Under the pieces are notes generated by a model, which did not search any database, was not told where the DNA came from, and worked only from the letters and a program-made list of their open reading frames with translations. A stretch of 64,000 nucleotides of DNA, taken from Rhynchopus sp. YZ270_cl-10. Its lineage: Eukaryota > Euglenozoa > Diplonemea > Diplonemida > Diplonemidae. The stretch is from the NCBI GenBank assembly GCA_964035575.1, contig OZ037906.1, forward strand, positions 496,001 through 560,000, given 5' to 3'. Shown here in pieces: positions 7,889 to 60,611 of this stretch; within the stretch, counting starts at the first letter, position 1, and each line of letters starts with the position of its first letter. The translations under genes and the position numbers were made by a program.

Positions 7889-7945
7889 TTGAAAGGTGCT
7901 AAAACGCGGCTCGGTCGTGATGCAAAGGGGGTGTATGCAAAGGGG
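7889..7945 (+). repeat. Dispersed repeat family G copy (GTGCTAAAACGC...)
   Basis: Shares GTGCTAAAACGC, TCGNGNTCATGCAAA and spacing with copies at about 42101-42160 and 60345-60415. In the copy at 60345 the body is preceded by the common head GAGAAGTTGAAA. Confidence 0.6.
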
Positions 7946-8156
7946 TAGAAAATAATAATAAAAATGGGAGTCTTTGTTTGAAGATGAGAGTAGGAAAGAG
8001 AGGAATGCTTTTAAATTCTCGTTGTTCGTATGAAAGTCCTTCTGTGGAAGATATTACAGATGTCACGCCGTGTACTACTGGAATGGCAAAAGAAAAGAAA
8101 AGAAACTTTGTAAGATGAACGTACCTCTCGTCCACACACCTTACAAAAAAAGGGGG

Positions 8157-8205
8157 TTTGGTAAGATGAACCTAAGCCTGTGCCCAGTCATCGTAGACTT
8201 AAAAC
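8157..8205 (+). repeat. Dispersed repeat family C copy (AAGATGAACCTAAGCC...)
   Basis: Follows AAAAAAAGGGGG. Other copies read GATGAACCTAAGCCT, a short loop, then a stretch ending AGTCACC that can pair back with CTAAGC. In this copy the pairing arm is weaker (CCAGTCATC). Confidence 0.55.
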
Positions 8206-8612
8206 AAAACCCTCCTCCAATAATGTGCCACCTAGGGGAAAAAAATGGGCCGTACGAATGTCTCAATTTGGTCAAAAAAAAGGGGGATAAATGCAAATTG
8301 AGCTATTTCTATAAGTACAGAATGGGGTGGCCTTCTGTCTTCGTTTCATGGCAAGGCAAGTCCCATCTTGCTCGGTGGGACTATGTACCGTTTGTCAGAA
8401 GATGGTCTTTCCACAGTTGTTGAAAATGAAGGAAGAGGGGGGGGGGAAAAGATTGAAAAAAGATGAATGAGCCTTTCAGGGCCCAAAGCAGTTTTTCAAA
8501 AATTTGGAAGAGGAACAAAAAAAAAAAAAAACTCTTGTAGAAGACAGATCACGTACTTTACATTTCAGAAACAGAACTTTGAGAACGGGAGGCTTTTTTG
8601 AGGGCTATTTTT

Positions 8613-10498: not shown

Positions 10499-10562
10499 TG
10501 AAAAAGAGAAGTTGAAAAAGTGCAAACGCCTCACCGTTCAATCAGCGGACGCAGGCACTGAA
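10499..10562 (+). repeat. Dispersed repeat family D copy
   Basis: Head AAAAAGAGAAGTTGAAA, then a body with GCAAACGCCTCACC and GGACGCAGGCACTG. Close relatives at 19326-19385, 41560-41612 and 43827-43885. Confidence 0.7.
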
Positions 10563-11182
10563 AAAATGGAAGGAAAAAAAACTAAAGAAAATGAATGTGC
10601 CCTTCTTACACACATTGCCGCTAACGTTTTGAAAAATTCAAGAAAAAAAAGGGGAAAAAAAAAATGCTCCAGGATGCCTTACAGGTGTCCCGTTTATACC
10701 GACAAACCACTTTCCCTAAGTAATATCATTTCTACACACGCCTCCTTCTTTTGCCGTGTCTACTGACTATGGGGGGTGGCTAAGGGTAGAGCGATTTGTT
10801 GGAAAATCGAAAAATAGATATTTTTGCGTTGACTGTAGGGTGCACTGCGTAGCTTTTTTTTGTTGATAAATTGACAACGTGAGTCACCTTGCTTTTTTTT
10901 TTCGTGTGATCTCCGCGCACTTTGTATCTTATCTTGCGGCGTTGTGCTGTTGCGAGAGGGCAGGGAATGGTGTTCTTGGTTTTGTATTTTTCTTTTTCTT
11001 TGAAATATTGGTAGTTGTGTGTTGGCGCCACACCCGAAAGGATGTGTTGTAGTACTTTTTCGTTCTTTCTCATTCTGAAAAGGGGAAGAAAAATGGAACA
11101 GTGAGAGTTGCCAACAATATTTCTTTTTGAAATATTGGGCATGGTGTGAGTGCCGAGACTCTTCACTGTGAAGTTGCCCCCT

Positions 11183-11667: not shown

Positions 11668-12048
11668 CCAACATCACCATGCGGGGCGTTGTAATACCCA
11701 AGTAATGTCCAAATGGAACTTCGTTTTCACTATAAAAAAGTTTGAGAGAAAAAAAGAGCGACGAGAGCAAAAACAGACATCGTCCGACAACTGAGTTATC
11801 TGAAAGCACTACTCAGAAGAGGAAACGAGGTGGGAGAAACCCCAAGAAAGAAAGTTTTTTTTTTGTAAGATTGAACCCAAGCCTCTGCTGAGTCAGCTTA
11901 AAATGAACAAAAAAAAATTACACATCGGAACAGAACGGAATGAAGACATACAGGACACACATAACAAGGCTTTGTATAGTTTGCACCTTGGATGGCGTTT
12001 TGTTTTTTTCTACGTTACAGAAATTAAAAAATATTTTGTAAATTTCTA

Positions 12049-15101: not shown

Positions 15102-16747
15102 GGCAGCCTTTGCTTCTCAGAGGGGGAAAGGGGGGGCGGGGTTTGGTTCGTTTCAAATGACGCGCATGACTTTGGGGTTGTGTATGAGGTGCAGTGGTGC
15201 AGTGGTGCGCTTTCTGTCGAAGGGGGGGGATTTTTGAGGAAAACGAAGAAGTAGTGTGCGTAGTGAGATCAAAGAGAGGTGCTGAATCGAAGCATGCTTG
15301 GTCATCAGTACGGAGAACGTACCGTGCATCCCCCAGGCAGGTCGTCGCAGCATCTGAGCAAAGACCACCACCCGAACAAAAAAGGACACAGACCTGAAAA
15401 CTCATGTGTATTTTGCTAGAGTATTCTTCTCCCCCCACCCAAAGCCCCGAACCACGGTCTCCGTCGTGATGGCCAAAAGGCCAACAGTCAGGGGTAAAAA
15501 TCGCTACAGTTGCGATTTGGCAGAGATTGGTATATCCTAGCCACCTTCACCACCCGTTATCGTCACAGCGGCTGCTAGACAGTAGTCTGTGTCGTCTCCT
15601 ATATGAAACACAGGTCATATCGTCTTTTGGAACACTCTACCCGAACCTAACCCCTCACTCTAACCCCTTACCCCTTACCAATCCAGATCTCAACTTATTG
15701 AAGCAGCGCTGCTGTCAAGCCCCCAACCTCAAGACAGCTTTCGTCGCCATTTTGTGTCCGTTAACTACATATTGGACCAGAAGGTGCGAAGACAGGCGGG
15801 GTCACCTGGGGTCGAGAGGTGAAATCTGTCAAGTTGACAGGTTCCACCTGTCGAGTCCACTAGCGGTTTCGCCTACTGGTCCACTAGACCCCAAAGACCC
15901 ACCACCCCCGCTATCGCTGATAGGTGAACAGCCCCCACCAACCCCGCCACTGAGGTGATTTCCTCAAGTAGCTAAAAGTGCTCAAAACCCCATTGCCCTC
16001 ATTGAAACTCCCCCCCCCTCGAACCATACAGTTCTGTTGCACGTTCCGCCCACAGCTGGCTTCCGTTCTGAAGTGCAACGGCTCTCTCGCCTCACCGCCC
16101 CTTTTTTGAGTGGCAGACAGGGTTTGCTGCTCACCTGCATAGGAGATTCAGCTTCCCAGGGTCGCAATGAGTATCACCTCTCTCACTCCTCCACCTTCAT
16201 TCCCCCTCTCTCTATGTGACAAACAACCCTCCTCAAAGTGGTCGAAGAGAAGAGAATACCATAGCAGTATCAGTACAAACCCACAACCCAAAACCCCTCA
16301 GGGTGCAACATCGGCGCATACACACACACGACGAACAGGAACACCTTCTCTCTCGCCCCCACCTTCCCCACTACAGCCCATCGAGACACAGCTACAACCA
16401 GACGTATTTTTTTGCAAACTCTCCCCTCCCTCCATCTCGCGAAAACACAGCGCCACCAAAGACATCGTAATATTCATACCCCTCAGAGGCAGGCACCTGA
16501 TCTCTACATACAAATCCTTGCAAAGTCAACCCTAAAGCCACCTCATATGCTCACCTTCAGAGAGAAGAAACCCCTTCAAATACAAAGCCCTCTCATGACA
16601 GTGTACCTAACAAACCACGCCACAAAGACTCAACAATGAGCATAGACCCTGGGTTGCTCTCACCAAAGGCGGGTGCTCCTTTAGGGGAATGATCATCGAC
16701 AGCAACAACAAAGAAGTATCCATCCCCTCGCTCCTGTATGGATTGAT

Positions 16748-16778
<31 letters not shown>

Positions 16779-19325: not shown

Positions 19326-19385
19326 TGAAAGAGAAAGTTGAAAGCGCAAACATCTCACCGGACACCGGTGGACGCAGGCACCGCT
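19326..19385 (+). repeat. Dispersed repeat family D copy
   Basis: Head AGAGAAAGTTGAAAGCGC, then ATCTCACCGGACACCGGTGGACGC. The central ACCGG/CCGGT forms the stem of a small hairpin. Confidence 0.7.
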
Positions 19386-19418
19386 TCCCCCCGCAGGACA
19401 TCAAACCCCAGAGAACAC

Positions 19419-19530
19419 TTCAAATGCAAACCCCTCTCGTGACAGTGTACCTTTGGTGTATGACCAAAACACCGTGGATGCAACCCATAACCATGGTCCC
19501 CTACATCCATTTCGCTGCTTCACATCGTAA
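19419..19530 (+). repeat. Dispersed repeat family A copy
   Basis: Begins CAAATGCAAACCCCTCTCGTG, contains GTGTACCTTTGGTGTATGACC, then GTGGAT and ACATCCATTTCG. It follows the family D copy directly. Confidence 0.65.
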
Positions 19531-20515: not shown

Positions 20516-20937
20516 TTTTAAAGTGTGTCAACGCCTCACCGTCCGGACAAACCGGGGATGCGGGCATTTAAAAGAAAATGGGGGATTGATTAGATAATCC
20601 TTCAGCCGTACTTAAGTCACAAAAAGAAGGTTTTGTTTGTATTTTGCCTCCATAAGGAAGCAGTCATGGGCGTATAACAACAACAACAACAACAACAACA
20701 AATGAAATTGAAGACTGCAAAACGTTCTACAAAAAAATGTGTTAATGCACCGTATGGAAACACCATTTGCACATATCGAGTCGCTGAGCACTGCTTCATT
20801 GACATACCAAAACAACAAAAATCTACCTTTTTTTTGAAAATTAAATACCCAACGAGAATACAACACCTGAAGGAGATGAGTCTCCCAGGTGTTCTTCACT
20901 CTGTACTTTTTTTGCGTGCATTTTTATTTTTTTTTTT

Positions 20938-20987
20938 TTTGAAAATTTGTAGTAGTGTTGACACCCGAGGATGAGCTTCACTAGTTT
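20938..20987 (+). repeat. Dispersed repeat family F copy
   Basis: T run, GAAAATTTGTAGTAGTG, then GACACCCGAGGATGAGCTTCACTA. AGTG at the left pairs with CACT at the right. Confidence 0.65.
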
Positions 20988-35624: not shown

Positions 35625-35802
35625 AAAAGTTCGCTCACGAAAAAGGCCTCTTTTAAAATGTGCTTTGAAATACAAAACCCTCTCGTGACATAAAGGGGAA
35701 GAGGTAAAGTTTTTTTTAAAAATGCACAAAAAATTCGTCGTATTTATAAATTTAAAAAAAAAAATGACGGCGCCGGCAAGAATGAACTTGCTAGGTGGTT
35801 TA

Positions 35803-37831: not shown

Positions 37832-39796
37832 CTACAGCTTCCCTATTTCAATGAGGATCACCTTAATGAACCAGAAGCACCAGAGGATCTGTGGTAGTGT
37901 TGATGGAGAATGTGTACAACTTTCTGCGACACTATTTTTTGGGACAACTCACAAAACGCTGTGCAAAAAAAAGCTCCGTTCTTCATTTAACAGAAAAGAG
38001 CTGAAACAAACCTACATTTTACCCCGTTTAGTTACAAAGAAAGGTTTATAAGATAAAACCTAAGACTCTCGAGCTTAGTCACCATCCCTCCCCAAAACTG
38101 TATACAGTTGTATTGTAACGAAGGGTGGGGACAAAATTAGCATAGTTATCACACCATACACCTTGTCCTCTGTAATGCCCATTGAAAGGGGATGTGTTTC
38201 CTCTCCCCCCTATTCTTTCCCTACAGATAATGTGCGATTCCCAGAGTTCCTCTGACCATGCAAAGACAACATACCGTCCACGTCCAAAAGCCGATGTCCA
38301 GGTCCGTCACGCAGTTATAGTCCAGCCCGACGTAGTCAAACTTATTGTTATCCCAGCCGCCCAAGAAGCAGGCCCAACTGTAGAGGGGGGAAAATGGCAA
38401 TGAAAACTATGGAGGGAATCGTATGTTGTTGTCATGTGACGAACGCAGGTTATAGTAATATAGGGAAAATCATTACAGAACGGTAAGAAAATGGCAAAGG
38501 AATAATGAATTCACCAAAAAATTGTCTCTCCTTGGGGGGGAAAACAAAACTTTCGGTGGACTTCTCCACAAAAGGAGTAATAAATCCAAATGATCCGAAC
38601 AATAACAATAACACAATCCTCGGAGATCCACTTCAGTCATATATGAAGCGATCCCTCATGCATTGTAATTTAGAATTGTGAAAAAAATGAGGAATCAGTT
38701 CGAGTAATGATGAGGAAGTGGATAGGGGACACAACAGCATACGTTAATAGCATAAAGATCCACGACAGATGCCTCAATATTCTTGCAACAATCTTCGACG
38801 CAAAGCAGACCGGAAGCTGTGTATATTATGTTACATTCGTTTAATTGGATACTCTGGTTACGCCATTCAGACAGTTTCTTCACTATATTATTGGCGAATC
38901 CTTGAAATACAGTCATTTCTACGCCCCACATCACAAACTTTAAAATAAATGAGTAATATCAACATTAACAATATCATCATATCAGACCACAATCAACATT
39001 GTGTACAAAGGTGACACAAGACAAGAGGAAGGCCGGATTACTCTACGACTGCAGAATGATTTTTACACTTTGCAATATTCCGTTACAATCAGACGAGCAT
39101 CCGCAGTTCTTGCACACAGAAACTGCCACACGCCAAACCTTCCATACGAAAGGATTAAAACGCAAGCCTACGGGGGTATTATAAAATCGTCAAAAATTTT
39201 AGCTATAACTCCCCCTCTCCCTATCCACTTCAAAATGCACATACAAATCCAGGGAAGAAGAGCTCTGTCGCCTCTACGGAGAGTCTGTACGAGAGCACCA
39301 CGACGAAGAGAATCGCGAAGGCGAGCGAGGCTGTGAAGGACGGCTCGTTCCACTTCATGCCGGAGAGCACGTAGTCACACTGCTCTGTTTCGAGGGGCCC
39401 GACACGGGAGGAAGACGACCAACCTTTGTAGCATGCACTGACGATACCAAGCTCCGCACGCTCCAGGAAGACACGCTCCGATACGTTGCCTACTGTGTCA
39501 ATGCGGTACACAATGTCAACAACAATTGAGTCCCCCCTCGCCCACGTTCTAGTCGAGATGATCACAACGCAAGTAATAAACGTCAATAACCTCGCAAAAA
39601 ACCACAACGGACCCTTCGCTCCCCAAGGCCCCCCATCTTCATCCTCAACCCCACCCCGCACCCCAGTTACCCGCACCTTCACGTCCCCCATTTTCCCTTT
39701 GTCCTCACGAACCCTGACGCTGATAGGATCAGCACCACCTCCAGCCTTCGACCCTAAAGGGTGGAAGTCGCTTGGCTCTGGTGAGCCTGGATACAT
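37832..39796 (-). CDS. Four-pass membrane protein, multi-exon
   Basis: Exon 1 39796-39248 (phase 0, donor GTATGT), exon 2 38937-38743 (donor GTATGC), a tentative exon 38630-38515, exon 38377-38275 (donor GTATGT, acceptor CTCTACAG) and a last exon 37888-37832 (acceptor CCACAG, stop TAG). Phases agree throughout, giving about 339 residues. TM1 is near residues 65-83 (WFFARLLTFITCVVIISTRT), TM2 about 155-175 (FTASLAFAILFVVVLSYRL), and TM4 is the final exon joined to the previous one (FWTWT then ILWCFWFIKVILIEIGKL). The loops carry paired Cys. TM3 would come from the tentative exon, the weakest link. Topology is like claudin or amastin-type tetraspan proteins, but no signature is conclusive. The leader has CCAATCAG before the ATG. 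Confidence 0.6.
38042..38085 (+). repeat. Dispersed repeat family C copy, inside an intron
   Basis: AAGATAAAACCTAAGACTCTC, GAGCTTAGTCACC: CTAAG pairs with CTTAG around a TCTCGAG-like apex. It lies in the last intron of the four-pass membrane protein, so the family is not strictly intergenic. Confidence 0.6.
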
Positions 39797-41317
39797 AGTT
39801 GCAGTTTTTTGTTTTGTATGTTCTGATTGGAATGATATTTGGTGGTTTTAAAGCATGGGTTGTGGGTACCGGCCGGTTACATATTACGGTGGCCACTAAG
39901 AATATTTGCAACACCCTCTTAAGAAATGACCACCTAAATACAGCGGAATTTACACAGATCATTTCTCTGGAGATCGAAATTCTGTCTTAATTAGTGACCA
40001 CCAAATCACACCCGGACTATGTAACCGGTTGGTAGTTCCTAAGTAACCTTGCTCAGTCCAGTAGTTAGATTTGGGTTTTAAAAAAGTGGGGAAGAGAAAG
40101 AAAATGAGATGTTTTATTTTGAGAGGGTGTGGGGTTGGATGCGAGGTGTGGAGACATAACGTAGTGGGGAGAGGGGAGAGGAGGGGAGGAGGGTTTTTTC
40201 TCAAATATAGGAAATATCTCTTTGGTCAGAAGAGAGGTTACTCTCGGTTATCTTTTTCTTGTCTTTTATTTTTTTTTTTTTTGTGTTGGATCGGGAAAAA
40301 ATCAAAACAAAAAATAAAATCACCCCAGAGAGAGAGAGAGGGAGGTTCTGGGTATGAAGGGGGTTGAAGGGAAAAAAGGGAAAAAAAAAAGACTAATTTG
40401 ACTTAAAACACAAAGCCCTCTCGTGAACAGTGCACCTCAGAGAAAGAAAGAAAACTTGAGAGATGAAGGTGCCTAAGTGTGCACAGACATAAAAAAAAAA
40501 AAAGGGAGGGGGCTTTTGACACATCGCGGGTAATGAACGTACTCAAATGGATGGGTGTCAAAAAGTTTGTGTTTTTCATGAAAATCGCAAAATTCTTGCA
40601 ACCCAAAAAAAACCGGTCTCCAAACTGAGAAAAACAATAGAAATTATCAGATAAACTGTGCCTCTTGTGCATACACAGTAGAGTGATGTACAATACCCCA
40701 TGTAATGTTTCTGCTAATGTTTCGCCAACTGTTTTAAGGCTTTCTTTTTTCAAAAGGCGACTGGCTATACCCACAAGGCATAGGTTCATCTGAGTGTCTC
40801 TGGCACACCAACACAACCACTACCAACAATTTTATTTGTCTGAAAACCTACTGCTGGAAAATACTGTCGCATTTTTTGCTTAAATTTGAAAAACTTAGTG
40901 AGTATTGGTGTGCACACACCCCCCGAGGATGCGTTTTTCACTCATAATTACTTAATTTTTTGCTGTCAGACCTTTTTTTCTCCCTCTCTCCCTTTCCTCC
41001 ACCTCTACCAAAAAAGGTAGAAAACTTCACTTTGCAAAAATCTGCAGATTCCAAAAAAAAGATAGCTGAAAAAGAGGGGAGGAAAAAAAAACGTGAATGA
41101 TGAACAGACCTTACAGGCGTGTACATAATGTTCGTTATTCTTGTTTCAAAGTTCATTTTGAGGGAAGTTTTTTACTTCCCCAAAAAAAAATAAGCAATGT
41201 CACCATTGGGATATGTGTCTCCCGTGTCTGCACATTTTTTTTAGATTTAATTCGTTGACTCTAAATTCATGGAAAAGAAAGCACCAGAGCGCTATAGACC
41301 TTGAAACCTTGCCACAA

Positions 41318-41385
41318 AAAGTGAAGTTATTGATGCAGGCACCTCCGACGTACCTGCATACGATGCCAGCCCCGGATGAAAGAAT
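41318..41385 (+). repeat. Dispersed repeat family I copy
   Basis: AAAAAGTGAAGTTATTGATG, CAGGCACCTCCGACG, then ACGATGCCAGCCCCGGATGA. A second copy lies at 50660-50728 with the same layout and diverged stem. Confidence 0.65.
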
Positions 41386-41692
41386 AAGTACCCTGCGGCC
41401 AACAAAAGGTGTAAAAAAGAAATCCAATGGCTTGCCCGTAACGTAGCGTGAACGAGGGCGGTACACAACCGCTCGTCAGCCGGCGGGGCTCACCTTCCGC
41501 TGAAGAGTTGTGAGCTTACAGATACTCCCGTTCGCTTCAACCCAACTCTTAGTGAACGATAAAAAAAGAGAAGTTGAAAGCGCAAACACTTCACCGGGGA
41601 AGAAACACAAAATCTGCCCGCCGTTTTTTGTATTATTATTATTTTTTGAAGAAGAAGAAGAAGGCGGGCTCTGCTAGCTCTGCTTTAAAATT

Positions 41693-41790
41693 TTAAGAAA
41701 AAAAGGTGAAAATTGATAGTGCAAACGCTGGGAAATGCAGGCACTGATATTCCATAGGGTTATCCAACCCCTCGGAGTGCACTGTGGGGA
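41693..41790 (+). repeat. Dispersed repeat family D copy, long form
   Basis: TTGATAGTGCAAACGC, GCAGGCACTGATATTCC and the palindrome GGGTTATCCAACCCC, then GAGTGCACT. The same long form occurs at 51103-51192 with GGGTTATCGAACCCC. Confidence 0.7.
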
Positions 41791-42388: not shown

Positions 42389-42515
42389 GGCAGCACATCT
42401 CACGCCTGGATGTGGCAGCTCTCCCGTGTGCAATAAGCTGGCCTGACGCACAAAAAAAAAGGGGGTTGGTGAAGATGAATCTAAGGCCACTGTGCTTAGT
42501 CACCTCAAGCACCTC
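42389..42515 (+). repeat. Family H copy followed directly by family C copy
   Basis: 42389-42450 is AGGCAGCACATCTCACGCC with AGCTGGCCTGACG. After an A run and GGGGGTTGGT comes AAGATGAATCTAAGGCCAC, TGTGCTTAGTCACC at 42464-42515. Confidence 0.6.
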
Positions 42516-43764: not shown

Positions 43765-43885
43765 GCTTGGTAAGGTAACCCCTAAGCCTCTCTTTGCTTT
43801 AGTCAGCTCCAGGTTTAAAAAAAAAAAAAAAGAGAAGTTGAAAGTACAAACGCCTCACCGGACACCGAAGGGCGCAGACACTGGT
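43765..43885 (+). repeat. Family C copy followed directly by family D copy
   Basis: Family C 43765-43812 (GGTAAGGTAACCCCTAAGCC, GCTTTAGTCAGC), an A run, then family D 43827-43885 (AAGAGAAGTTGAAAGTAC, AAACGCCTCACCGGACACCG). Confidence 0.65.
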
Positions 43886-44351
43886 TCTCCGCGCGGGAAA
43901 AAATAAAAATGAATGTGAACTGTCGCCCCTCATCTACACTATCTACTCAAGACCAGCACTGAAAAATCCACAAACCATAGGGAGCAAGGGAAGCACCTTA
44001 GATGGGATGTTTAGAGTAGTAAAAGAAACAGATTTTTCATTTAAAAGGTGCACTCCGACATATCCAAAAGCAGAGGGGGAGAGAGGAACACGGAGACATC
44101 CATTGGTCTGCACAGATGCGCATACCATGGGAAATACCTTCCTCAACCCTCCCCCCCGCTCCTACACCTTCTCCCCCACGGAATTACGCGAAAAAGATAC
44201 CCAAAAAAATGGTCTCGGCGCAGATCGACCCCACGCTTTACGATGTGCAAGAGTTCGGGGGCATTGGGATGTGCATGACACCTCAACCCAGAAGCTGCCG
44301 GCTATTCAAAGGGATCCATCAATGTGTAACCATTTTCGCCTCTTTTTTTCT

Positions 44352-44405
44352 CATTGAAAACTTGGTTGTATTAGTGTAGATACCAGAGGATGAACTCCAC
44401 TATTT
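44352..44405 (+). repeat. Dispersed repeat family F copy
   Basis: TTGAAAACTTGGTTGTATTAG, GTAGATACCAGAGGATG, AACTCCACTAT; near-identical to 47123-47173. It lies just downstream of the VPS9 gene stop. Confidence 0.75.
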
Positions 44406-46938: not shown

Positions 46939-49176
46939 TCAGTGGTGGCCGTGATCGTCACCGCTCGGGCGCTTGTGTCCGTGACGGGTGTCGTCAAAGA
47001 ACGGCGAGAACAGCTTAGGGTCGTTCGTACCAATCGCATAAGCCTCTCCACGGGAGAAGTTACCTAACCCAGGGGCGTTACAACCTGTTGTAGTGTGTCA
47101 AATGGCAGTTTCTTTCTTTTTCTTTGAAAACTTGGCTGTATTAGTGTAGACACCCGAGGATGAACTCCACTATACTTTCTTTTTTTGGATAATTGAACCA
47201 TTGATAACGTATAGACACCTCCCTTTTTCCTCGTGTGAACTCCACGCATTTTTAGGCAATCCCTACGGATGGAATATAACCAATATGTGTTTAAATCAGT
47301 GTGTAACTTCTTAAGCATTGCCCAACGGAGGGTTGACGAAATAGGCAAAAGAGAAAGGGGGAACCCCAAACAAAAGGGGGGGCTAGATAGACAGATACTC
47401 ACCGATAGATGCTCCTGAGCCTCTCTGTACATAGCAGACACGGCATAATACAGGATGGCCTACTTCCCCTTTTGGGTGATAAGCACCTTTTAGCGCAGGA
47501 TCATCTGCACCGCGTTTGGGCCGCATGGGTAAGCATAGGAATAAGGAAACTTTTGAAAAAAGGACACATGCCTCATCCGCTAAGAGACGCAGGGGATGAG
47601 ACAGTGAAGCAAGTTGTTTGTAATACATTTTTTTTTTCGATCTTGCTAAGATTGCGTGATATGCAGTGAACACAAGTGACATACTGAAAGAGACTGCCTT
47701 TCCCGGATGGTACGCCACCTTACCGAACTGCCCGTACTCAAACCTGTGTTGTGATGTATTTTTTTTGTTTTCGTACACCATGGACTCGTAATGACATTAC
47801 GCGCGTCATGACGAGGTAATTACGAGTGCCTTGACGAGGGCACCCCCTCGTAATTACGAGGGGGTGCCCTCGTCATGACGAGGTAATTACGAGGGCACCC
47901 CCTCGTAATTACCACGTCACGACGTCGTCATGACGTGGGCACCCACGACAAGGCGATTTTTGACCAATACAAAAAAAAATTTTTTTTTCAAAAATCGGGC
48001 GTGGTAGGTCATAAAGTGGCCCAAAAAATCCAAAGAAAACCTCAGATTGACCAAATGGTGAAAAAAATTGTCAAGTCAAATTTCAGCCAAAATACGGCCA
48101 TTAGACCCCCACAGATGCTTAAAAGTGCCAAATTTTGCTTTTAATGGCCTCAAATCGTCGAAATTAGCCCTATATAGGGGCCAAAAAAAAAAATTCGAGA
48201 GTCCCTTTCCCTGGGAGGCAATAGCCAGACAATGACCACGGGAGCACCCCTCGTAATTACGAGGGGTGCCCTCGTAATTACGAGGGCACCCCCTCGTCAT
48301 GACGTCGTAATGCCGTCGTCGTGACGAGGGAAACCCCACGTCATGACGTCGTCATTACGAGGGGGTGCCCGCGTCGTGACGACGTCATTGCGCGCGTAAT
48401 TTCCCACGTAATTTCCCTCGTCCCTCGTCACGTAATGTCATTACGAGTCCATGGTGTAACGCCAAACTCTTTACCCTCTGTTTGAGCTTTACCGAATCGC
48501 TCAACTGCGATGGGGAAAAAATCGTGGGTGCTTTTGATATCGTCTCTGAAATTAGTTTAGTTGAAATTCAAGATCTGAACCGCTACGATAATTTGAGAAA
48601 TCCAGAAAGCAGTGCCAACTCCCTTGTAGTTTTCGCGCCCCACCCTAGGAATTTCTTCCAACGTTCTGCCTTTTTCAGAGTGGTTGACCCCCATTTTATT
48701 TTTTCCCCATGTGCGCCCTTTATGTTAGGCTAATGAATTGCAAAAAGGTATGAGTCAGATCTTGTATTTCGTGAAAAAAAAATAAAATATAGTTTTTGGG
48801 TCATTCCAACTTTTAAAAAAGAGTGGAGGAGAGTTGGGTCCGGTTATATTGATGTGTAGAAAAAACGTGCAAAGATGATTGGAAAAAAAATTCTGATATT
48901 TTTTTACCGAATCGCCGTGAAAGAAACATACACATTGTGAAGATGGTTTCTGGTGGACAGCCCTCCGAGGGTCTTTTCGTACATGATCAGCACGAAGGCG
49001 AAGCAGCAACCGATCCAGAACCCGTTTGACAGAAATGGGGGGATACCGATCCAGGTGGTGCCGTGGTGCATTCCCGAGGACCGCAGGTAGGGGTGATCCT
49101 TGTAGCGGAAGAGGTTCTCAGTGAAGAAGGCGGGTCTGGTTGCGGACAACATCCGCGGCGCGGTGCGGCGCAACAT
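46939..49176 (-). CDS. Small probable mitochondrial membrane protein, four exons, 176 residues
   Basis: Exons 49176-48932, 47743-47685, 47504-47403 and 47063-46939; phases 2, 1, 1 agree; donors GTATGT, GTATGT and GTGAGT. The exon 3 acceptor is the least certain choice. The protein opens with an Arg/Ser/Thr presequence (MLRRTAPRMLSATRPAFF). It has one hydrophobic segment at about 47-66 (FLSNGFWIGCCFAFVLIMYE), continues FEYGQFGKVAYHPGKAV and NDPALKGAYHPKGEVGHP, and ends in a His-rich tail (KRPSGDDHGHH). A single-span inner-membrane subunit of a respiratory complex or ATP synthase fits this form, but I cannot assign which. CCTTCCACAG, 23 nt before the ATG, is a candidate acceptor. Intron 1 (1188 nt) contains the transposon at 47776-48456. 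Confidence 0.65.
47123..47253 (+). repeat. Two dispersed family F units in tandem, inside an intron
   Basis: 47123-47173 (GAAAACTTGGCTGTATTAGTG, GACACCCGAGGATGAACTCC) and 47190-47253 (GATAATTGAACCATTGATAAC, TCGTGTGAACTCCACGC). Both lie in intron 3 of the four-exon gene. Confidence 0.65.
47776..48456. mobile_element. 681-bp TA-flanked element of CTCGTAATTACGAG palindromes
   Basis: The inverted termini start CACCATGGACTCGTAATGAC and match for 26 bp (47776-47801 and 48431-48456). The flanks are TA on both sides (47774-47775 and 48457-48458), as in Tc1/mariner-type insertions. About 170-220 bp at each side is a tangle of short palindromes (GTAATTAC, GTCATGAC, CTCGTAATTACGAG); the centre (about 47950-48230) is unique A/T-rich DNA with no frame. 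It sits in intron 1 of a probable mitochondrial gene. Confidence 0.85.
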
Positions 49177-49793: not shown

Positions 49794-51014
49794 TCATGCT
49801 GGTGATGATGCTGGTGCTGGTGCTTCTGAGGCCTTCTCCGCAGGAATAAGAGGAATTTGCTGTAAAAGATGTGTTGGAATTGAAAAATATGTGTGGTGTG
49901 GCCGACGACCCCAAAATAGCACAAAATAGCAACCCCCCTTCAGCCACACCAATATAACTAATACAAAAGCCCTCTCATGACAGTGTATCGGATGCATGAT
50001 CGGTGCACGGGGTGGACCCCCCCCAAGACCCATTTTTTTCACTAATACGTACCCCATTTCCGGCCAAAAAATTTTCCTCAAAATCTTTGCAATATTGACC
50101 CCTCCCTACATTGATTTCAATAGTATACCTTCCTTCACCTTGGTTACCCTTACGGGGGTGAAGGAAGGTTGTGGGGCACATACATGTTCAGGTGACAGGA
50201 GTACGTGCAGAGTTTGCGCTCCGATCAACGCTCCTGCAAGCGCACTGCCCAGGAGACGCCAGTACAGCCCTTTTGCCATCTCTTTTTTCAGCCCGGATTC
50301 AGTTGCGATGTGGCTTGCGGTGTGGCTTTGCGACTTCCATGTCACTGCCTTAAGGGGCATAAACCTCTGTTTGAATTTTTGTGCAAGATCGAAGGAAGTG
50401 TCCTCGCTTGTATCCCGCGACGTCATCCTGAGGGTTTTTGAGATGTTCATTTTTTTTCAAAAAAAAAAAAACGAGAAAAAAAAGGGGGCTTGACTTCAAA
50501 TACAAAACCCTCTCGTGACAGTGCACTTTCGGTGAGTGACCAGAAGTGGGTGGACCCGAGAATGAGTATTAACGAGAATGGGTATTAGAGAAGGTTCACA
50601 TATAAACTCATTCTCTCTTTTTTCCTACTTCTTAGGTATCTATTTTTACAATAAAAAAAAAACTGTGGTTGTTGATGCAGGCACCTCCAACTGACCCACT
50701 GTACGATGCCAGCCATCCGGATGATAAAAAAATGGTTTAACCAAAAGCAAAAAAAAAAAGGGGGAAAGAAAGCAGACATACTTTGTGGGCATATTCAAAG
50801 TGGCCGCTGTCATTGCTTCGGGAAGAGGGTTGTGGTCCTTGACAATGTCATTAATCTTCGTGATCCCTGCCTTGCGCACCTCGCGCTGCAGCTGTGTGAA
50901 CTTCTCTGCCTCCTTATTCGGTGTCAGGTTTACACCGCGAGTCACCTTCTTCTGCTCGAAGGTGTCATACCCAGCGGCGCTCGATGATGCCAATCTCACT
51001 GCACTTCGCCGCAT
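49794..51014 (-). CDS. Small probable mitochondrial membrane protein, three exons, 180 residues
   Basis: Exons 51014-50782, 50427-50184 and 49859-49794; donors GTATGT both times; acceptors CCCTCAG and TTTTACAG; phases 2 and 0 agree. The N-terminus is presequence-like (MRRSAVRLASSSAAGYDTF). A charged helical region (about 37-60) precedes a hydrophobic helix at about 137-155 (LYWRLLGSALAGALIGAQTL). The last exon is short and Ala/Pro/Ser-rich (ending APAPASSPA). No family recognised; the form suits a single-span mitochondrial inner-membrane protein. Introns 1 and 2 contain family A copies, and intron 1 a family I copy. An alternative reading through the second donor would end in an unlikely tail, which favours splicing. 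Confidence 0.65.
49961..50035 (+). repeat. Dispersed repeat family A copy, inside an intron
   Basis: TACAAAAGCCCTCTCATGAC, GTGTATCGGATGCATGATCG, GGGGTGGACCC, AAGACCCATTT. Confidence 0.6.
50496..50560 (+). repeat. Dispersed repeat family A copy, 3' truncated, inside an intron
   Basis: CAAATACAAAACCCTCTCGTG, ACAGTGCACTTTCGGTGAGTG, ACCAGAAGTGGGTGGACCC. Confidence 0.65.
50660..50728 (+). repeat. Dispersed repeat family I copy, inside an intron
   Basis: GTGGTTGTTGATGCAGGCACC, TCCAACTGACCC, ACGATGCCAGCCATCCGGATG; compare 41318. Confidence 0.6.
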
Positions 51015-51533
51015 TGTTTGTGTATCCCCTCTGACTCTGATTGGTTTTCGTAAGATCTCAGGTAAGGGGGTAGGTAAACCACAAAATGATAGAATTTACA
51101 AGAAAGTGAAGTTGATAGTGCAAACGCCCTCGGGTACGCAGTCACTGACACTCCGTGGGTTATCGAACCCCTGAGGTGGTGCACTTGGGATACATTTACA
51201 GGGAAACTGTAAGCAGGTACACAGTCATTACCCCATCCTGATTGGGAAGGAGGGATAACATGATTTAAAGATTCAAGAAAATTAAAAGAAAGAGAAATCT
51301 ATACTTCACCTGAATATTTTGCCCTTATTGCAAAGGGGGTAAACATCTAGGTTTCTTTGAGTCAGGAGAGAGAGAGAGAGAGAGAGGAAAACTAAGGTGA
51401 GAAGCACAACAAAAGCAACAAAAAACCACGAGAGTGAGAAGGTCATTTTTAACAAAAATCCCAAAAAAATGGTCTAAATTCTCGACATCCACCAGGGGTA
51501 AAACCCGAGAACCTACATCAAATCTCAACAAAA
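51015..51533. other. Intergenic
   Basis: Long-form family D copy at 51103-51192, a GA repeat at 51367-51386. The minus-strand frame at 51325-51531 starts MLRFDVGSRVL, faintly like LRFEIGSRVE of the adjacent CobW protein, but the likeness stops at once. Confidence 0.5.
51103..51192 (+). repeat. Dispersed repeat family D copy, long form
   Basis: AAGTGAAGTTGATAGTGC, AAACGCCCTCGGGTACGCAG, TCACTGACACTCCG and GGGTTATCGAACCCC; compare 41693. Confidence 0.7.
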
Positions 51534-53716: not shown

Positions 53717-55052
53717 CATAGGGTGAAAACGATCGTTTTTTTTTTATTTTTTTTTTTACGAATCTGGGAAAAAGTGATCGGTCTTTTTTTTTTTTTTTTT
53801 TTTTCACGATCGTGAAGAAAAAAAAAACGATCGTTTTTTTTTTTTTTTTTTCTTCACGATCGTGAAAAAAAAGCACCTTTTTCTTCACGATCGTGAAGGA
53901 AAAAAAAAACGATCGTTTTTTTTTTCCCATATTATGTCGTTGATCGCTGGCCCACACCAGGGAGGGAGCCCCCACAGGTGCCCACAACCCCCCTGAAATC
54001 GGCCGAGAGTAACTTTTAGCGGTGTTTTGACGTAAAATGTCACCTTTTTTGCCATTTTTGGGGTGTACTTTTCTGGAACAAAATTCGCAAAACCCGAAAT
54101 ACGAATCGTAAAAAATCGCGACATTCTATGACATACGTATACCATGAAGCAGCACGTCACGGCATGGCATGTAACATGCACATGTAATATCGCCAAAAAC
54201 CTAGTCGTAGTAACATCATCACTGTGCAAACCCCTGTCCATCCAATACAATTCACACTCTTTGTGGGTGGTCTTGCTGCCTTTTTGCCACAGTAATTTTT
54301 GGCCCGGCAGGCATGCTCTTGAAGCATGGCAATTTAGTGTGTATGGGGCAGGGTGTTGTTTTGTTCTGAATTCCCTTTGTTACAATATCTATCCAATCGC
54401 GAGTGGCTGTATGTGTATCGTGAGACACTCTTTTTAACCCTTTACGGACCAAGAGGACATTTATGCCCATTGTGGCGGGGGATGCGGCGTTCAACACCAG
54501 GCCAAGTTGGCCAAAAGCCCAACTTTTGTACTGTCCAACCTCTGTACAATTACGGTATATTTCGTTGGCTGGTGGTCTGAAGAGTGATCTGACCATATTC
54601 TCCAGGTATAACAAATGCCCAAATAATGCATTGGCGAAGGAATTTTGCACTTTTGACCATCACACATTACTTGTATTTTTACCGGTTTTTTAATGAGTAC
54701 AACCTATGTCAGAGCACGCTGTCCCACAGATTTTAGAATTTGGGGGGGTCACGCAACAGGGATTACGCAGCTCCCCATACTTATCGCTAAATATGCCGTT
54801 TTCCCCGAAAAATTTTAGAATTCCACGCCCAATTTCTTTCTTTTTGGCAAAAAAAAAAATTTTCGCGCTTCGCGCGAAAAAGGTCCTCAGAAGCTCAATT
54901 CCGGAAACAAATACGGGGGGAGCGACGTTTTCCAACTCCTCCGCCATCAGCAGGAACACCTCCGTTTTCTCTTGAATCTGGGACGCTTGTTGCTGAGAAA
55001 CAGGGCAACAGCGCGTTCAAGCATATTCCCCATCTTTTCAGTGTTAAACTCG

Positions 55053-56110: not shown

Positions 56111-57338
56111 ACGCATACAGTCTTGTCCGTACCCATTTCTCCCACACAAGTCACCACCCCCTTGTGACTTGCCTGTAACAGTGGAAACGTTTCCCTCCCA
56201 GCCGCAAACCCGTTCAGTGTATCGTGAGCCACTGCAGTGACCCACTCACGCTCGACCCTGTCCCTCCTTGTAAACAGTTCGCCTTCTCCTACGTTGTGCT
56301 AAGGAAAACCAAAAAACATGCTCAAAAATGATGGGCACGGGGGTCAGACTCCACTTCTGACCACTTAAAATTAGGTCATACACGTGTTATACCCCAAACT
56401 GACCAAGAAATTTTCCCAGTGTTCGATGGTGATCGAATTAAATCGGTGGTAAAAAGTGAAAAATGGGGCATGCCAGGCCCACGTCAATCAGCCTAAAAAT
56501 GTTGCAACTTTAAACGCGCGTCTCTCCCGTACACCAATATACACTTTTTAACACATACAGTACAGCAAGGGAAAACCAAGGGATTTTACCCTGTGTTCTC
56601 CTTGTTACGGCTGCACTAACCTAATCATCAAAACTGCTCGATTTTGGCTTTATCTAAAAGATCGACATCAATTCTTACGAAATATAATTTATTTTACGAT
56701 TTTGAGTAGAATTCTGTTTGCAGGGCGAAGTCACGAGGCAGGGGGTGATTTTGGGGGTGAGCGCCAAAAAAAGTCCTTTTCCTAGGGTTGACCCACCTCC
56801 CTCCAGCATCCAACGATATGACATTTTCACGAAAGTTGTCGATTCTTGCCTTATTATTGTCACACAGAAAAAAAAATGTTTTTACGAAAATGAGTAGAAC
56901 CCCATTCCTACCAACGTGTGGCATTCGTGCGCCACTATAGTGGCACTTGCCATGGGTAAAAACGGTTTTCTGGTTTTAGTGCCTCGCTGGCGACATCCGT
57001 TGGGGGGGATTCTGGTGTGAGAATGTTCTCGATTTTTGCTTTATTTGAAAGATTCGCCACAAAATCGTTTCAAGGAAAAGAGTCGGTCAAAAATTCCAAG
57101 TAGAACCCAGAAACTCTCCCTTGCCACCCATTTCACGCCCATGCCCCTTGTACTACTAGGGGAAAAAAAAAAAACGATCGTGAAAAAAAAAAACGATCGT
57201 GAAAAAAAAAAAAAAAATGTCAAGATCTTGAAAAAAAGTTCAAGATCTTGAAAAAAACCGTCACGATCGTTCTCACACTATGTGAAAAGGGGGCAACTTT
57301 TTTTTTTTTTTTTGCTTCCCTCCATTAGGAGAATTTGG

Positions 57339-58631
57339 TTAGGTTGTGAAGAGGCGCTGTGCTTCACAGCGTATTTTATCAAATATATCCCCTCGCTTGG
57401 TAGAGAGTGAGTAACAGGAGCACTGCAGGACTGAGAGAGAGGACTTCATGATGGGTCTGTTGTCGCGCTGCTCCATCGGTATAATAAAGTCTTTGAAGAA
57501 CAGAAGCACCTGAAAGAGACAGAGCCGTTGTAGGGTGTGTCTATCATGCTGTCGCGCATACTTTGCCATGACGGACAAACATTTCAAAACCACATCCAAA
57601 AACACTGCATCAACCCCGTCGCACGCTTCATCCACCGTTGCTGCATGCAAAACCCTTAGCGCCACTTCAAATCTATAAACTCTTACCGCAAGTGCCGCGA
57701 GAGCAGTGTATACCGCAGCAGATCGTGAATGCAGTCCCATAGAACGCATCATGGTCACCACTTTAAACCCTTTTTGTAAGCTTTGGCATGACACCAAAAG
57801 CGCCAAACAGGTGGTGAAATCTGCGGTAACACCATCAACCTCTCGCATGCGTTTGAATACGGAGAACGCCGCTGCTTCATCCTTTGCCTTGCCGAAGCCC
57901 GCAATCACATCAGCATATTGATACGGCATGCGTGGTATCGACAACCTTTCCATCTTATCAAAGGACAACGCAACCTTCTCCACATCACCTGCCCTGCTAT
58001 ACGCTTTCAGAAGGCTATCAAACACTTCTTCACGCTGCAGCAACCCTGATTGTATTAAACTCTTCGCTAGCACCTCCGTTTCACGCACCAAAGCGTTGCG
58101 TGCAAACATACGAAGCGACATCTGAGCAGAAAACGCATCAACACCTATCACCTTGTGCGCCGAGGCCAGGTACACACCTGCTTCTTCACCAAGCCCTCTC
58201 TCCCCTCGAAGGGCGCGGGTAACGAAACGGCGTACGGTGGCCTCAATTTTAATATGGTTGTCGGGTTGTCCACGCAGTTCTGTGGTCTCATAGCGGAACC
58301 GGAGGAGGTCGTACCCACTGCTGGTACCTACAGTGGGTGAGCGGTTGTGGACACAGTTGATTCGGACTTTGCGACGTTTCCCTTCTCTGCGAATTTGACT
58401 TTGCCATTTTTCACTCATTATTGAAGTCAATGAATCACTGTCCAGGACCGCTGCATGGAAATGCATCACCATATCTGTCACAGGTACCGGCGACACTGTC
58501 TTCCAAGTAATATCCTCTTCGGGAGCTGTATGAAAAGCAGGAACCGCATTGCTTGGGCTATCGATATGACACCACGCACACCCCCTATGTAACGATGTAA
58601 CGGAGGGTGCCCTGTGGAGAAGCCTATACAT
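57339..58631 (-). CDS. Pentatricopeptide repeat (PPR) protein, probably mitochondrial
   Basis: 430 residues from the first ATG (58631); the open frame extends slightly upstream without one. The N-terminus (MYRLLHRAPSVTSLHRGCAW) is an Arg/Ser-rich, acid-poor presequence. From about residue 190 there are helical-hairpin repeats in PPR register: VFDSLLKAYSRAGDVEKVAL, YADVIAGFGKAKDEAAAFSV and FTTCLALLVSCQSLQKGFKV, with MRSMGLHSRSAAVYTALAAL following. Four or so P-type repeats are readable; no DYW or other editing domain is present. PPR proteins bind organellar RNA in processing, editing or translation. The C-terminal about 90 residues have no recognised domain. CCTCTCCAG lies about 60 nt before the ATG. 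Confidence 0.8.
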   Translation of the reverse strand: MYRLLHRAPSVTSLHRGCAWCHIDSPSNAVPAFHTAPEEDITWKTVSPVPVTDMVMHFHAAVLDSDSLTSIMSEKWQSQIRREGKRRKVRINCVHNRSPTVGTSSGYDLLRFRYETTELRGQPDNHIKIEATVRRFVTRALRGERGLGEEAGVYLASAHKVIGVDAFSAQMSLRMFARNALVRETEVLAKSLIQSGLLQREEVFDSLLKAYSRAGDVEKVALSFDKMERLSIPRMPYQYADVIAGFGKAKDEAAAFSVFKRMREVDGVTADFTTCLALLVSCQSLQKGFKVVTMMRSMGLHSRSAAVYTALAALAVRVYRFEVALRVLHAATVDEACDGVDAVFLDVVLKCLSVMAKYARQHDRHTLQRLCLFQVLLFFKDFIIPMEQRDNRPIMKSSLSVLQCSCYSLSTKRGDIFDKIRCEAQRLFTT

Positions 58632-59439
58632 TATGGTCGACCCAACAAAAGAAGACACATTACATCGTTTGTGTGTATAAATGTTCTGGAGAGGTGGTTT
58701 GGAAACAGGGGAGTGGATAGTGAATAGTGAATAGTGGGTAGAGGGGTGCTGTAAATACGCCTATTTTGCACTCCATTATGTAATTAATTTTTTTTTCTTT
58801 GAATGAGCTGTCAGTGTAGACACTTACCACTTACATGTGAACTCCACGCAAAGCCGTTCCTCGGCTATCTCTCATTTCGTGGATACTGCCCCTACGGTTC
58901 TACTCCCGCCCTCCACTCAGGTAACAAACGGGGATGAGTGGGTGTCCAAGGGTCATGACTTCCCAGGTGATATTAGGTTGACACCAGGCTTTATCCCTGT
59001 AGAGTATTTTTTAAAAAATGTTTTAAAAATAGGGAAGGGAAGGAGGGGAAGGGAAGATGTTCGTTTTGTGGTCAGTTTACCCTCTTTTAGGTAAAATTTA
59101 AATTTACAATATGTCCTGCCCCGAAGATGAGATAAAAAACCCCCCCGCCCGCCCACCCGCCCACCCCTTTCTATTGTTAGCAATATTGTCTTTGTTTTTG
59201 CTTTTTTTTTCTTCTTTTTATTGGGTCAAGAATAATATATCTTGTAGAATTCCTATGTCAGGTTTGCGTTTTGTTTTTTCCCCCATTTTTTGCTGGTGTG
59301 TACTATAGAACACCAAAAGAGGCCCGTACTCAATATCAATGTCACCAAAAAAAAGGAGACAAAATATGCACAGATAGCACACCTCTTCCCTAAAGAGTGT
59401 GGCGGAGATGAGAAAAAAAAATTGAACGTTTTCTTCTTC
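58632..59439. other. Intergenic
   Basis: A family F relative at 58798-58852 (GAATGAGCTGTCAGTGTAG, TGAACTCCACGC); otherwise no gene seen. Confidence 0.5.
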
Positions 59440-60228
59440 TTAGTCCGTCTTCGCCTTTTTCGCAGCAGGGCGGAGGAACGGGATCATGAAGTAGATCAGC
59501 AGAATCTGTTGTAAAAAAGGAAGTGGGAGAAAAAAAAAAGAAAATAGTTTGGGTAAAAGACAGAAAGATAACGTGTAATGCCAAAGTTGAGGGACACAAG
59601 GCCAAGCCTGTCATTTTAAAATGAAAAACGATAATTTTGTTGAAAGAAAAAAAAATTGGAGTTGTCCAGCATCGTCTCCTCTTCGGTTTTTTTTAAAAGG
59701 ATATTTTTCGGTATAATCTGATTCAAAAGATAATTTCAGTTCTCTCTTTTCATCACAAAGATGCAACACAGATCTTTCAAAAAAAAAAAAATAGTTTCAA
59801 ACCCTTTTTTTCACACATACGATGATAGTCCTTGGCCCCCAGGGGATTTCGAAGAACGGATCTTCTGAGTCAATCGGGAGTGCTGCGAAGGTGAGGGCCA
59901 CTGCGGGGAGGCAGATTGCGAGGAAGGGGATCTTGCTTTGCGGGCGGTGGGTGTGCTGGTCGACGATGCCGACAATGTGAGAGGTTTGAATGCCACATGC
60001 ACCACAGGAGGCCCACACAGCGACACCCACAAGCAGGCCCTGGTACACCGCCAGGTCACGCACACCGTAGAACCCACGGTGCGACCAACGCAGCCAAAAA
60101 TTCTCAAAGTCGGGAACGTGCCGCAAATGAATGCACCAAGGGTTCAGCGACCCATACACATACGCAGCGACCCCCAACATCAACAGCATCCACAACACGA
60201 CCCATTGGACGGAGAGTAATCGCTGCAT
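59440..60228 (-). CDS. Four-pass membrane protein, two exons, 157 residues
   Basis: Exon 1 60228-59821 and exon 2 59505-59440, phase 0; donor ATC|GTATGT, acceptor TTTACAACAG. The join completes the fourth membrane helix: exon 1 ends PWGPRTII and exon 2 reads ILLIYFMIPFLRPAAKKAKTD. The other helices are at about 8-28 (QWVVLWMLLMLGVAAYVYG), 60-79 (VYQGLLVGVAVWASCGACGI) and 101-119. Loop 1 (WCIHLRHVPDFENFWLRWSH) is rich in aromatic residues and His. No family recognised; the basic tail suggests a cytosolic C-terminus. A long pyrimidine tract and CATTCCACAG end 13 nt before the ATG, one of the best candidate trans-splice acceptors in the window. Confidence 0.75.
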
Positions 60229-60611
60229 CGTGTTTGTTTTGCTGTGGAATGAATTAAAGGGAGGAGAGAAGAGGATACGGTATGGATAGGGAGAACGAAG
60301 ACGCCAAGATAGGCACCACAGTGCATCTTGAAGAGAGAAAAAAAAAAGAGAAGTTGAAATGTGCTAAAAAAGCATCTCAGTCGAGTTCATGCAAATGGCG
60401 GAGACGTGAGTGGTAAAAAAAAATTACCATGAGAGTGAGTTATAGTAAGATTGTAAAATAAGTTTGAAATTTTCGTTAAAATCTGATAGGGGAGAGTGGT
60501 TTTTTGGAACTTTCAGGCTTTAGAGTATTTTTTTTGTGTTTGTGTAACTGAGAAACAGAGGGGGAATAGTTTTCCTCGATTTTTTTTGAAAAAAGAAAAG
60601 AAAAAAAAATG
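60229..60611. other. Intergenic with family G repeat
   Basis: 60345-60415 carries the common head AAGAGAAGTTGAAA joined to the family G body (TGTGCTAAAAAAGCATC, GAGTTCATGCAAATGG, ACGTGAGTGGT). Nothing else recognised. Confidence 0.6.

What the first reader, a model, noticed from the sequence alone, without database searches (positions are those of the whole stretch)
7889..60415. Modular superfamily of short repeats: common purine head plus interchangeable hairpin body
Families A, D and G have different bodies but the same left module beside an A run: AAAGTAGAGTTGAAA (A, 20388 and 34855), AAAAAGAGAAGTTGAAA (D, 10499 and 43827) and AAGAGAAGTTGAAA (G, 60345). Family I has GTGAAGTTATTGA. Families E and F begin with a T run and GATAAATTG or GAAAACTTG, a similar GANAANTTG pattern. 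Bodies of about 25-100 bp then differ, and most can fold on themselves. One head with many bodies is not how a single SINE family normally looks. Composite retroposons, or a set of small structured RNAs spread by one mechanism, would explain it.
Basis: partly seen in the sequence, partly recalled or inferred. Interest (0 to 1): 0.8.

Follow-up and report, generated by a model that had tools for sequence, protein, structure and literature searches.

The report
Strand-locked LINE tails in a protist
Most of these scattered short repeats match the 3' ends of one clan of jumping genes (LINEs) in a likely diplonemid flagellate, each with a predicted hairpin beside a run of T or A, and nearly all that could be checked point the same way as the genes around them, which suggests that insertion is steered by transcription or replication.

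Summary
The repeats are real, but the modules were read backwards. On the opposite strand each 'head' is the unpaired 3' linker of a LINE RNA (CAANTTNTC-like) next to a T-run or A-run, and each 'body' is that family's terminal hairpin, cut at a variable 5' point. LINEs in the same 152-Mb genome end in tails H, P (close relative of D/G) and F; endonuclease and reverse transcriptase domains were shown for the H LINE. No parent was found for A or for the exact D tail. Nearest named relatives: Diplonema papillatum proteins.
Unusual: (1) most families sit at T-runs, one relative (F) at A-runs. (2) Many copies start within 3 nt of the terminal hairpin's base, giving ~46-nt units. (3) Orientation follows the genes: listed T-tailed sets are 50:0, 23:0, 67:0 and, for LINEs, 41:0 sense (overlapping sets; 33-50% of places unassigned). 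F is biased, not absolute (18:4). LINE families outside the clan's search list are 15:22, 28S rRNA scraps 13:7. T-run asymmetry is only 1.45-fold.
Known kind (LINE 3' ends), new variant. What sets the strand (replication fork, transcription, selection) is not shown.

The parts
3511..3547 (-). family A tail (hairpin + linker)
   Evidence: profile hit
8157..8192 (-). family H tail
   Evidence: profile hit
10503..10560 (-). family D tail; head at 10505 on +
10858..10889 (-). family E tail (linker CAATTTATC, A-run)
   Evidence: seed of its own profile, which found only itself
11862..11895 (-). family H tail
   Evidence: profile hit
16574..16606 (-). family A tail
   Evidence: profile hit
19328..19385 (-). 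family D tail
   Evidence: profile hit
19417..19450 (-). family A tail
   Evidence: profile hit
   Evidence: profile hit
20520..20566 (-). family D tail, diverged
   Evidence: profile hit E 0.0009
20936..20983 (-). family F tail (A-tailed)
   Evidence: profile hit
   Evidence: profile hit
35662..35690 (-). family A tail, cut inside the hairpin
   Evidence: profile hit
38040..38083 (-). family H tail
   Evidence: profile hit
40399..40435 (-). family A tail
   Evidence: profile hit
41321..41333 (-). family I linker, P-type with internal loss
   Evidence: read by eye
41565..41597 (-). family D tail, cut inside the hairpin
41711..41747 (-). P-type tail (upstream hairpin to about 41780)
42472..42505 (-). 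family H tail
   Evidence: profile hit
43767..43805 (-). family H tail
   Evidence: profile hit
43829..43886 (-). family D tail
44353..44402 (-). family F tail (A-tailed)
   Evidence: profile hit
47121..47172 (-). family F tail (A-tailed)
   Evidence: profile hit
49960..49987 (-). family A tail
   Evidence: profile hit
50491..50526 (-). family A tail
   Evidence: profile hit
51103..51148 (-). P-type (D-related) tail
   Evidence: profile hit
60345..60364 (-). family G = D-type end, about 17-18 nt long
   Evidence: exact head, weak hit of the P profile, E 0.008, by eye

Best explanation
Read on the gene-sense strand, the H, D/G and F repeats match the 3' ends of LINEs with related reverse transcriptases (family A likely likewise), likely inserted by target-primed reverse transcription into homopolymer runs, with cDNA synthesis likely ending at the base of the terminal hairpin and first-strand priming likely tied to the direction of replication or transcription. 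SHOWN: LINEs of three lineages end in the hairpin + linker of H, P (relative of D/G) and F; T-tailed copies often lie in T-runs and F copies in A-runs; a large share of copies begin at the hairpin base; T-tailed copies and LINEs are sense in every place that gene markers could assign. INFERRED: the LINE protein binds the hairpin; the RNA 3' end pairs with an A-run 3' end in the target; the nascent cDNA (or a processed template) ends at the hairpin base; priming uses the template (antisense) strand because that is the nascent lagging strand if forks run with transcription, or because of transcription itself. The window copies look like dead scraps; no function is shown.
For: Parents: the LINE at C73 and 14 further copies all end ...AAGGTGACTRAGCACGAGAGGCTTAGGATCATCTTATAAACTTTTC followed by T-rich sequence (T-run 2-21); LINEs with 60-62% identical RT end ...AGTGCCTGCGTCCCAGAGGCGTTTGCACTATCAACTTCAC + T3-T9 in 6 of 6 ends fetched; one copy of a 56% relative ends in tail F + A16. 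RVT_1 and Exo_endo_phos in the H LINE. Fold z: H -3.3, P -4.0, D -3.4/-4.4, F -1.6/-2.3, A -0.4. Sites: of 5 truncated H LINEs, 3 have oligo-T on both sides with 7-8 nt that could be a duplication; at distinct hairpin-base junctions T4+ in 16 of 25 (H) and 10 of 19 (D) against 0.11, A4+ in 11 of 21 (F) against 0.08. Hairpin-base starts: 26 of 36 (H), 21 of 25 (F), 20 of 30 (D) complete-hairpin copies lack a LINE match in the 14 nt upstream. Strand (sense:antisense): first 100 listed of 1504 heads 50:0, 50 unassigned; 40 scored D places 23:0, 17 unassigned; first 100 listed of 1130 A places 67:0, 33 unassigned; T-tailed LINEs 41:0, 28 of 69 unassigned. LINE groups F1-F5, outside the RT search list, 15:22, 15 of 52 unassigned; 28S scraps 13:7, 15 of 35 unassigned.
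Against: No classical target-site duplication: none of 11 nt or more among 124 pattern matches (98 distinct ends); one of 5 LINE copies has no T-run at its 5' junction and one is unclear; P LINEs are followed by only 3-9 T. Family A's hairpin is no better than shuffled. No LINE with the exact D tail or the A tail was found. A-tailed F is not absolute: 18:4, LINE F8 3:1, 18:2 in the fetched loci. P47, in the same RT list at 47%, is 4:3; its tail was not seen. Between 33 and 50% of places are unassigned. Selection against antisense copies is not excluded. Replication direction is unknown here.
Confidence: 0.6

Rival explanations
1. Same LINE tails, inserted in both orientations, but antisense copies are purged by selection on polycistronic transcripts (for instance because an antisense tail gives a harmful processing signal).
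For: A milder sense bias exists in relatives: Leishmania SIDERs are about 4-fold commoner in sense within gene clusters (PMC2689281 passages). In the window 0 of 25 copies overlap an ORF of at least 200 aa.
Against: LINE groups F1-F5 in the same genome are often antisense (15:22) and 28S scraps are 13:7; 40-nt tails would have to be more harmful antisense than LINEs with an RT domain. A 41:0 count for LINEs is hard to reach by purging alone. Caveat: where F1-F5 sit relative to gene-poor stretches was not examined.
Confidence: 0.25
2. Independent small structured RNAs (SINE-like hairpin genes of about 46 nt) copied in trans by the LINE proteins.
For: Many copies are one hairpin + linker.
Against: The box-B-like GGTTCGATAACC of family D corresponds to the end of the P LINE reading frame with its stop codon; ARAGORN finds no tRNA in 8 loci; no other promoter search was made. 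Copies of other lengths exist, some reaching LINE coding sequence, and D copies also stop at a second hairpin base (4 of 52).
Confidence: 0.15
3. Strand bias is only a by-product of targeting T-runs, which are commoner on the gene-sense strand.
For: T-tailed copies often sit in T-runs.
Against: T-runs of 8+ are only 1.45 times as frequent as A-runs on the sense strand (305 against 211 in 214 kb; 246 against 181 away from elements), and A-tailed F would then lean antisense, but it leans sense.
Confidence: 0.08

Closest known systems
Stringent-type LINEs with a 3' stem-loop tail (UnaL2, ZfL2-1, ZfL2-2; PMC4176376, passages read)
   Same: A stem-loop near the 3' end of LINE RNA that differs between families; the paper reports that each LINE protein needs its cognate stem-loop.
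   Different: Here a T-run or A-run at a homopolymer target follows; binding is untested; the hairpin base also marks the 5' end of many copies.
SIDER retroposons of Leishmania (PMC2689281 and PMC11520807, passages read)
   Same: Numerous truncated LINE remnants in polycistronic gene clusters of Euglenozoa, mostly in gene orientation.
   Different: The large SIDER2s carry a 79-nt signature at the 5' end and an A-rich tail, and shorter ones seem to have lost the 3' end; 82% of those in 3'UTRs are sense. Here the 3' end is kept, copies are mostly about 20-160 nt, and T-tailed families are sense in all assigned places.
LINEs of Diplonema papillatum (PMC10161547, passages read)
   Same: Closest named protein relatives, 46-49% identical over nearly the whole RT region; the paper reports about 2500 retroelement gene models and about 3600 scattered 28S pieces.
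   Different: The passages read say nothing of tails, hairpin units or strand; the D. papillatum genome was not available here and the supplements were not read.
Human L1 (sequence relative in the PDB, 8sxt; the rest recalled)
   Same: Endonuclease + RT, 5' truncation, insertion at homopolymer runs.
   Different: L1 is A-tailed and, as recalled, has no such tie to gene orientation.

Membership tests
LINE (non-LTR retrotransposon) | reverse transcriptase of the non-LTR type | tested here: met
   RVT_1 E 1.1e-24 in the H LINE; best PDB matches human L1 ORF2p and R2
LINE (non-LTR retrotransposon) | APE-type endonuclease | tested here: met
   Exo_endo_phos E 1.9e-13 in the H LINE; not tested for P or F LINEs
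LINE (non-LTR retrotransposon) | constant 3' end, variable 5' truncation | tested here: met
   with a peak at the hairpin base
LINE (non-LTR retrotransposon) | target-site duplication | tested here: inconclusive
   none of 11 nt or more in 124 matches, 98 distinct ends; oligo-T of 7-8 nt on both sides in 3 of 5 LINEs
Stringent-type LINE | 3' stem-loop bound by its own protein | not testable with these tools
   stem-loop predicted for H, P, D and F; binding not testable
SINE | Pol III promoter, separate from a LINE ORF | tested here: inconclusive
   box-B-like motif of D matches the P LINE frame end; no tRNA in 8 loci; no wider promoter search
SIDER | 79-nt signature at the 5' end | not tested
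   signature not searched; copies keep the 3' end instead
Small independent structured RNA | discrete transcript | not testable with these tools
   no RNA data

The most novel reading that the evidence does not exclude
A LINE clan whose integration is wired to the direction of the replication fork or polymerase: the LINE RNA is primed on one strand only (the nascent lagging or transcribed strand), and reverse transcription is cut short when the newly made cDNA snaps into the terminal hairpin, so that tens of thousands of 46-nt hairpin units are laid down as strand markers along each chromosome arm.
Probability: 0.35. Interest if true: 0.8.

Novelty: new variant of a known kind. Interest (0 to 1): 0.62.

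Why it matters
LINE insertion is usually thought of as close to strand-blind with respect to genes (recalled). A clan whose T-tailed members are sense in every assigned place, beside LINE groups and 28S scraps that are not, makes a natural test of whether replication, transcription or selection sets insertion strand. The hairpin-base starts offer a readable trace of how cDNA synthesis ends. The simple gene order of the chromosomes (one divergent switch fits all 86 units with two or more markers) makes the strand map easy to read.

Tried and rejected
tRNA/SINE reading of family D: set aside, the box-B-like motif matches the P LINE reading-frame end, ARAGORN empty in 8 loci. A 21-nt duplication round the L042 copy: set aside, a near-copy of the same motif occurs a third time nearby, so it may be a local duplication. 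T-run asymmetry as the cause of strand bias: rejected. Head as a chance purine run: rejected. GANAANTTG as a motif on its own: not enriched. Rfam: one LSU piece only. The strand test used a hand-typed list of 99 of the 100 strands with slips; superseded. First tally of heads without splitting C1 and C2: 55 sense, 11 antisense, 34 unassigned; the split at C1 1.45 Mb and C2 1.0 Mb is post hoc, based on SL-like arrays inside them and on the strand order; after it, and with more markers, 50:0 with 50 unassigned. Gene markers: 373 of the 418 rows were entered; the others are second pieces of a gene or tandem neighbours, left out by hand. Of the 144 rows, 137 were tallied; of the 150, those in groups F1-F5 (52); F6 (14 places, all unassigned), 22 rows of groups with very long frames or short RT matches, and four single rows were not tallied. 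Groups F1-F5 are my grouping by score, not a tree. In one search, 7 of 42 rows were left out (5 of the rDNA array C111, 2 second pieces). One search listed 40 of 487 candidates, all on +, so its 18:4 rests on one strand of the listing. The 124 matches are 98 distinct ends. Literature: T-tailed LINE searches and a hairpin-termination search returned 0 papers; this says only that these terms did not meet in the held library.
Full report
WHAT IS THERE. The window is C74:496001-560000 of a 152.4-Mb, 126-contig genome. Of 19 ORFs of at least 200 aa, 14 are on the minus strand and each of the 5 on plus overlaps a minus one; minus ORFs include 3-HAO, fasciclin, kinesin, metallophosphoesterase, VPS9 and PPR proteins. 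The D/G head lies at 10505, 41567, 43831 and 60347 on +. Genome-wide the exact 14-mer occurs 732 + 772 times against 4 + 4 for the reversed pattern.

ORGANISM. Not named by the tools. A diplonemid spliced-leader pattern recalled from memory matches 734 times within one mismatch (listed: 1 exact), 0 in the control, many in arrays. The best named relatives of the LINE reverse transcriptase are Diplonema papillatum proteins at 46-49%. The window carries a 28S rRNA piece followed by A9; about 3600 such pieces are reported for D. papillatum (PMC10161547, passages). So it is likely a diplonemid other than D. papillatum (inference).

THE MODULES ARE LINE 3' ENDS. I looked downstream of RT domains. 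One LINE family (F7, here H) stops at TAA and a few bases on reads AAGGTGACTGAGCACGAGAGGCTTAGGATCATCTTATAAACTTTTC + T-run; 14 further copies end the same way, with 2-10 T before the first other base and T-rich beyond. RT paralogs at 60-62% end in AGTGCCTGCGTCCCAGAGGCGTTTGCACTATCAACTTCAC + 3-9 T (6 of 6 ends fetched): the close relative of the D/G tail; D also keeps the reading-frame end (...SGVR*) by hand translation. One copy of a 56% paralog ends in tail F + A16. Thus head = reverse complement of the 3' linker (TTTCAACTTCTC, TATCAACTTCAC, AAACTTTTC, CAAGTTTTC), body = terminal hairpin. No LINE with exactly the D or the A tail was found; A is placed here by likeness (loop CACGAGAGG shared with H, linker TTTCAA). 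The H ORF has Exo_endo_phos and RVT_1 and resembles human L1 ORF2p and R2 among solved structures.

HAIRPINS. Minimum-energy folds give one hairpin for H, A and F and two for P and D, with an unpaired linker of 10-16 nt. z: H -3.3, P -4.0, D -3.4 and -4.4, F -1.6 and -2.3, A -0.4. P and D share the same two-hairpin layout with partly different stem letters (by eye). No covariation statistics were run; the copies are scraps, so I do not lean on it. An alignment of 22 of 44 distinct H copies is.

INSERTION SITES. T-tailed ends are followed by T (D: 74-93% in the first six positions of 54), F by A (64-100% in the first six of 11). Five 5'-truncated H LINEs: three lie inside T-runs with 7-8 nt of oligo-T that could be duplicated, one is unclear, one has no T-run at its 5' side. 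Ordinary duplications are absent: none of 11 nt or more in 124 matches (control 0.3%); at 10 nt or more 3 (control 0.8%), at 8 or more 13 (control 6.3%) (98 distinct ends). D copies have T5+ at the 5' junction in 24 of 57 against 0.125 (this set includes the 20 loci chosen for long D matches).

START AT THE HAIRPIN BASE. H: 22 of 47 copies start within 3 nt of the base, 4 inside, 21 beyond; F: 13 of 29, 0 inside, 16 beyond. Some of the longer starts are chance alignments, and five H rows are one duplicated insertion (by eye). D: 15 of 52 at the base of the last hairpin, 4 at the base of the one before, 18 inside, 6 between, 9 beyond. Among copies with a complete terminal hairpin, 26 of 36 (H), 21 of 25 (F) and 20 of 30 (D) lack a LINE match in the 14 nt upstream. 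The F figure is an upper bound, as several F copies share an upstream GTTTTGTA-like motif, perhaps of another subfamily. No single significance test was run on the peak.

STRAND. In the window 24 of 24 profile copies, and the E copy, are on the gene strand. In window + 20 loci 150 of 151 copies share the majority strand of their locus; against ORFs 113 are sense, 3 antisense, 35 unassigned. Two of the three antisense cases are in L023, where the largest + ORF is a hAT-type transposase; the third is an F copy in L019. With 373 gene markers (Pkinase, Helicase_C, AAA, Kinesin) all 86 units with at least two markers fit one divergent switch (59 '-+', 15 '-', 12 '+', 0 other). Heads: 50 sense, 0 antisense, 50 unassigned of the first 100 listed; D places 23:0, 17 unassigned of 40; the strand order of the heads alone breaks the one-switch rule in 3 of 100 (random mean 30.5). 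A places 67:0, 33 unassigned of the first 100 listed, including a tandem array of 8. These sets overlap. T-tailed LINEs 41:0, 28 unassigned of 69. A-tailed F places 18:4, 18 unassigned of 40; LINE F8 3:1, 4 of 8 unassigned. Other members of the RT list: F10 10:1, F11 3:0, F12 5:1, P47 4:3. Groups outside that list: F1 3:11, F2 0:3, F3 2:2, F4/F5 10:6. 28S pieces 13:7, 15 unassigned. T-runs of 8+ on the sense strand 305, A-runs 211 in 214 kb.

HOW IT MOST LIKELY WORKS. Shown: LINE 3' ends, homopolymer sites for many copies, hairpin-base starts, sense orientation of T-tailed members. Inferred: the protein binds the hairpin, the RNA end pairs with an A-run 3' end, cDNA synthesis ends when the cDNA hairpin forms (or the template was cut there). 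For a sense insertion the primer strand is the template strand of the genes; if forks leave from the central switch, that is also the nascent lagging strand. Since other LINE groups and 28S scraps are not locked, I favour a cause in the LINE machinery over general purging of antisense copies, at about 0.6 to 0.25.

SCALE. 24 profile copies in 64 kb would scale to some 57,000 in the genome (extrapolation from one window).

LITERATURE. Stem-loop tails: PMC4176376 (passages). SIDER orientation: PMC2689281 (passages), PMC11520807 (passages). Searches for T-tailed LINEs and hairpin-limited truncation gave no papers. Listings on strand and fork (10 of 262 shown) and on orientation and Okazaki fragments (10 of 53 shown) were seen as listings only; none of those papers was opened.

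Mended on recount: E is its own seed; the share unassigned is 33-50%; 124 matches are 98 ends; endonuclease tested for the H LINE only; 'unrelated' LINE families are groups outside the RT search list.

Noticed in passing
whole genome G000: All 86 contig units with at least two of the gene markers used fit a single divergent strand switch (minus genes left, plus genes right); no convergent order seen.
   Followed up: partly
G000:C1 about 1.39-1.50 Mb and C2 about 0.96-1.05 Mb: Spliced-leader-like arrays inside the two longest contigs, with a second minus-to-plus block beyond: each looks like two chromosomes joined.
   Followed up: partly
window 2159-2422 (-): 28S rRNA piece followed by A9; 35 places with this piece or part of it (window included, rDNA array left out) are 13 sense, 7 antisense, 15 unassigned.
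   Followed up: partly
LINE groups F1 and F2: Lean to antisense (3:11 and 0:3), the opposite of the T-tailed clan.
   Followed up: no
window 25252-25538 and 26536-26822: 287-nt direct repeat, 98% identical.
   Followed up: no
window 27125, 31727 and 32910: 87-nt repeat in three copies, 93% identical to the first.
   Followed up: no
window 47774-48458 and 21790-22018: Dense palindromic arrays of short units.
   Followed up: no
window 53726-53925 and 57169-57235: Repeated ACGATCGT-type palindromes among T-runs or A-runs.
   Followed up: no
G000:C37 about 1.182-1.199 Mb: Eight family-A tails about 2.32 kb apart, a tandem array.
   Followed up: no
L023 2-2074 (+): hAT-type transposase ORF against the direction of the tails there.
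   Followed up: no
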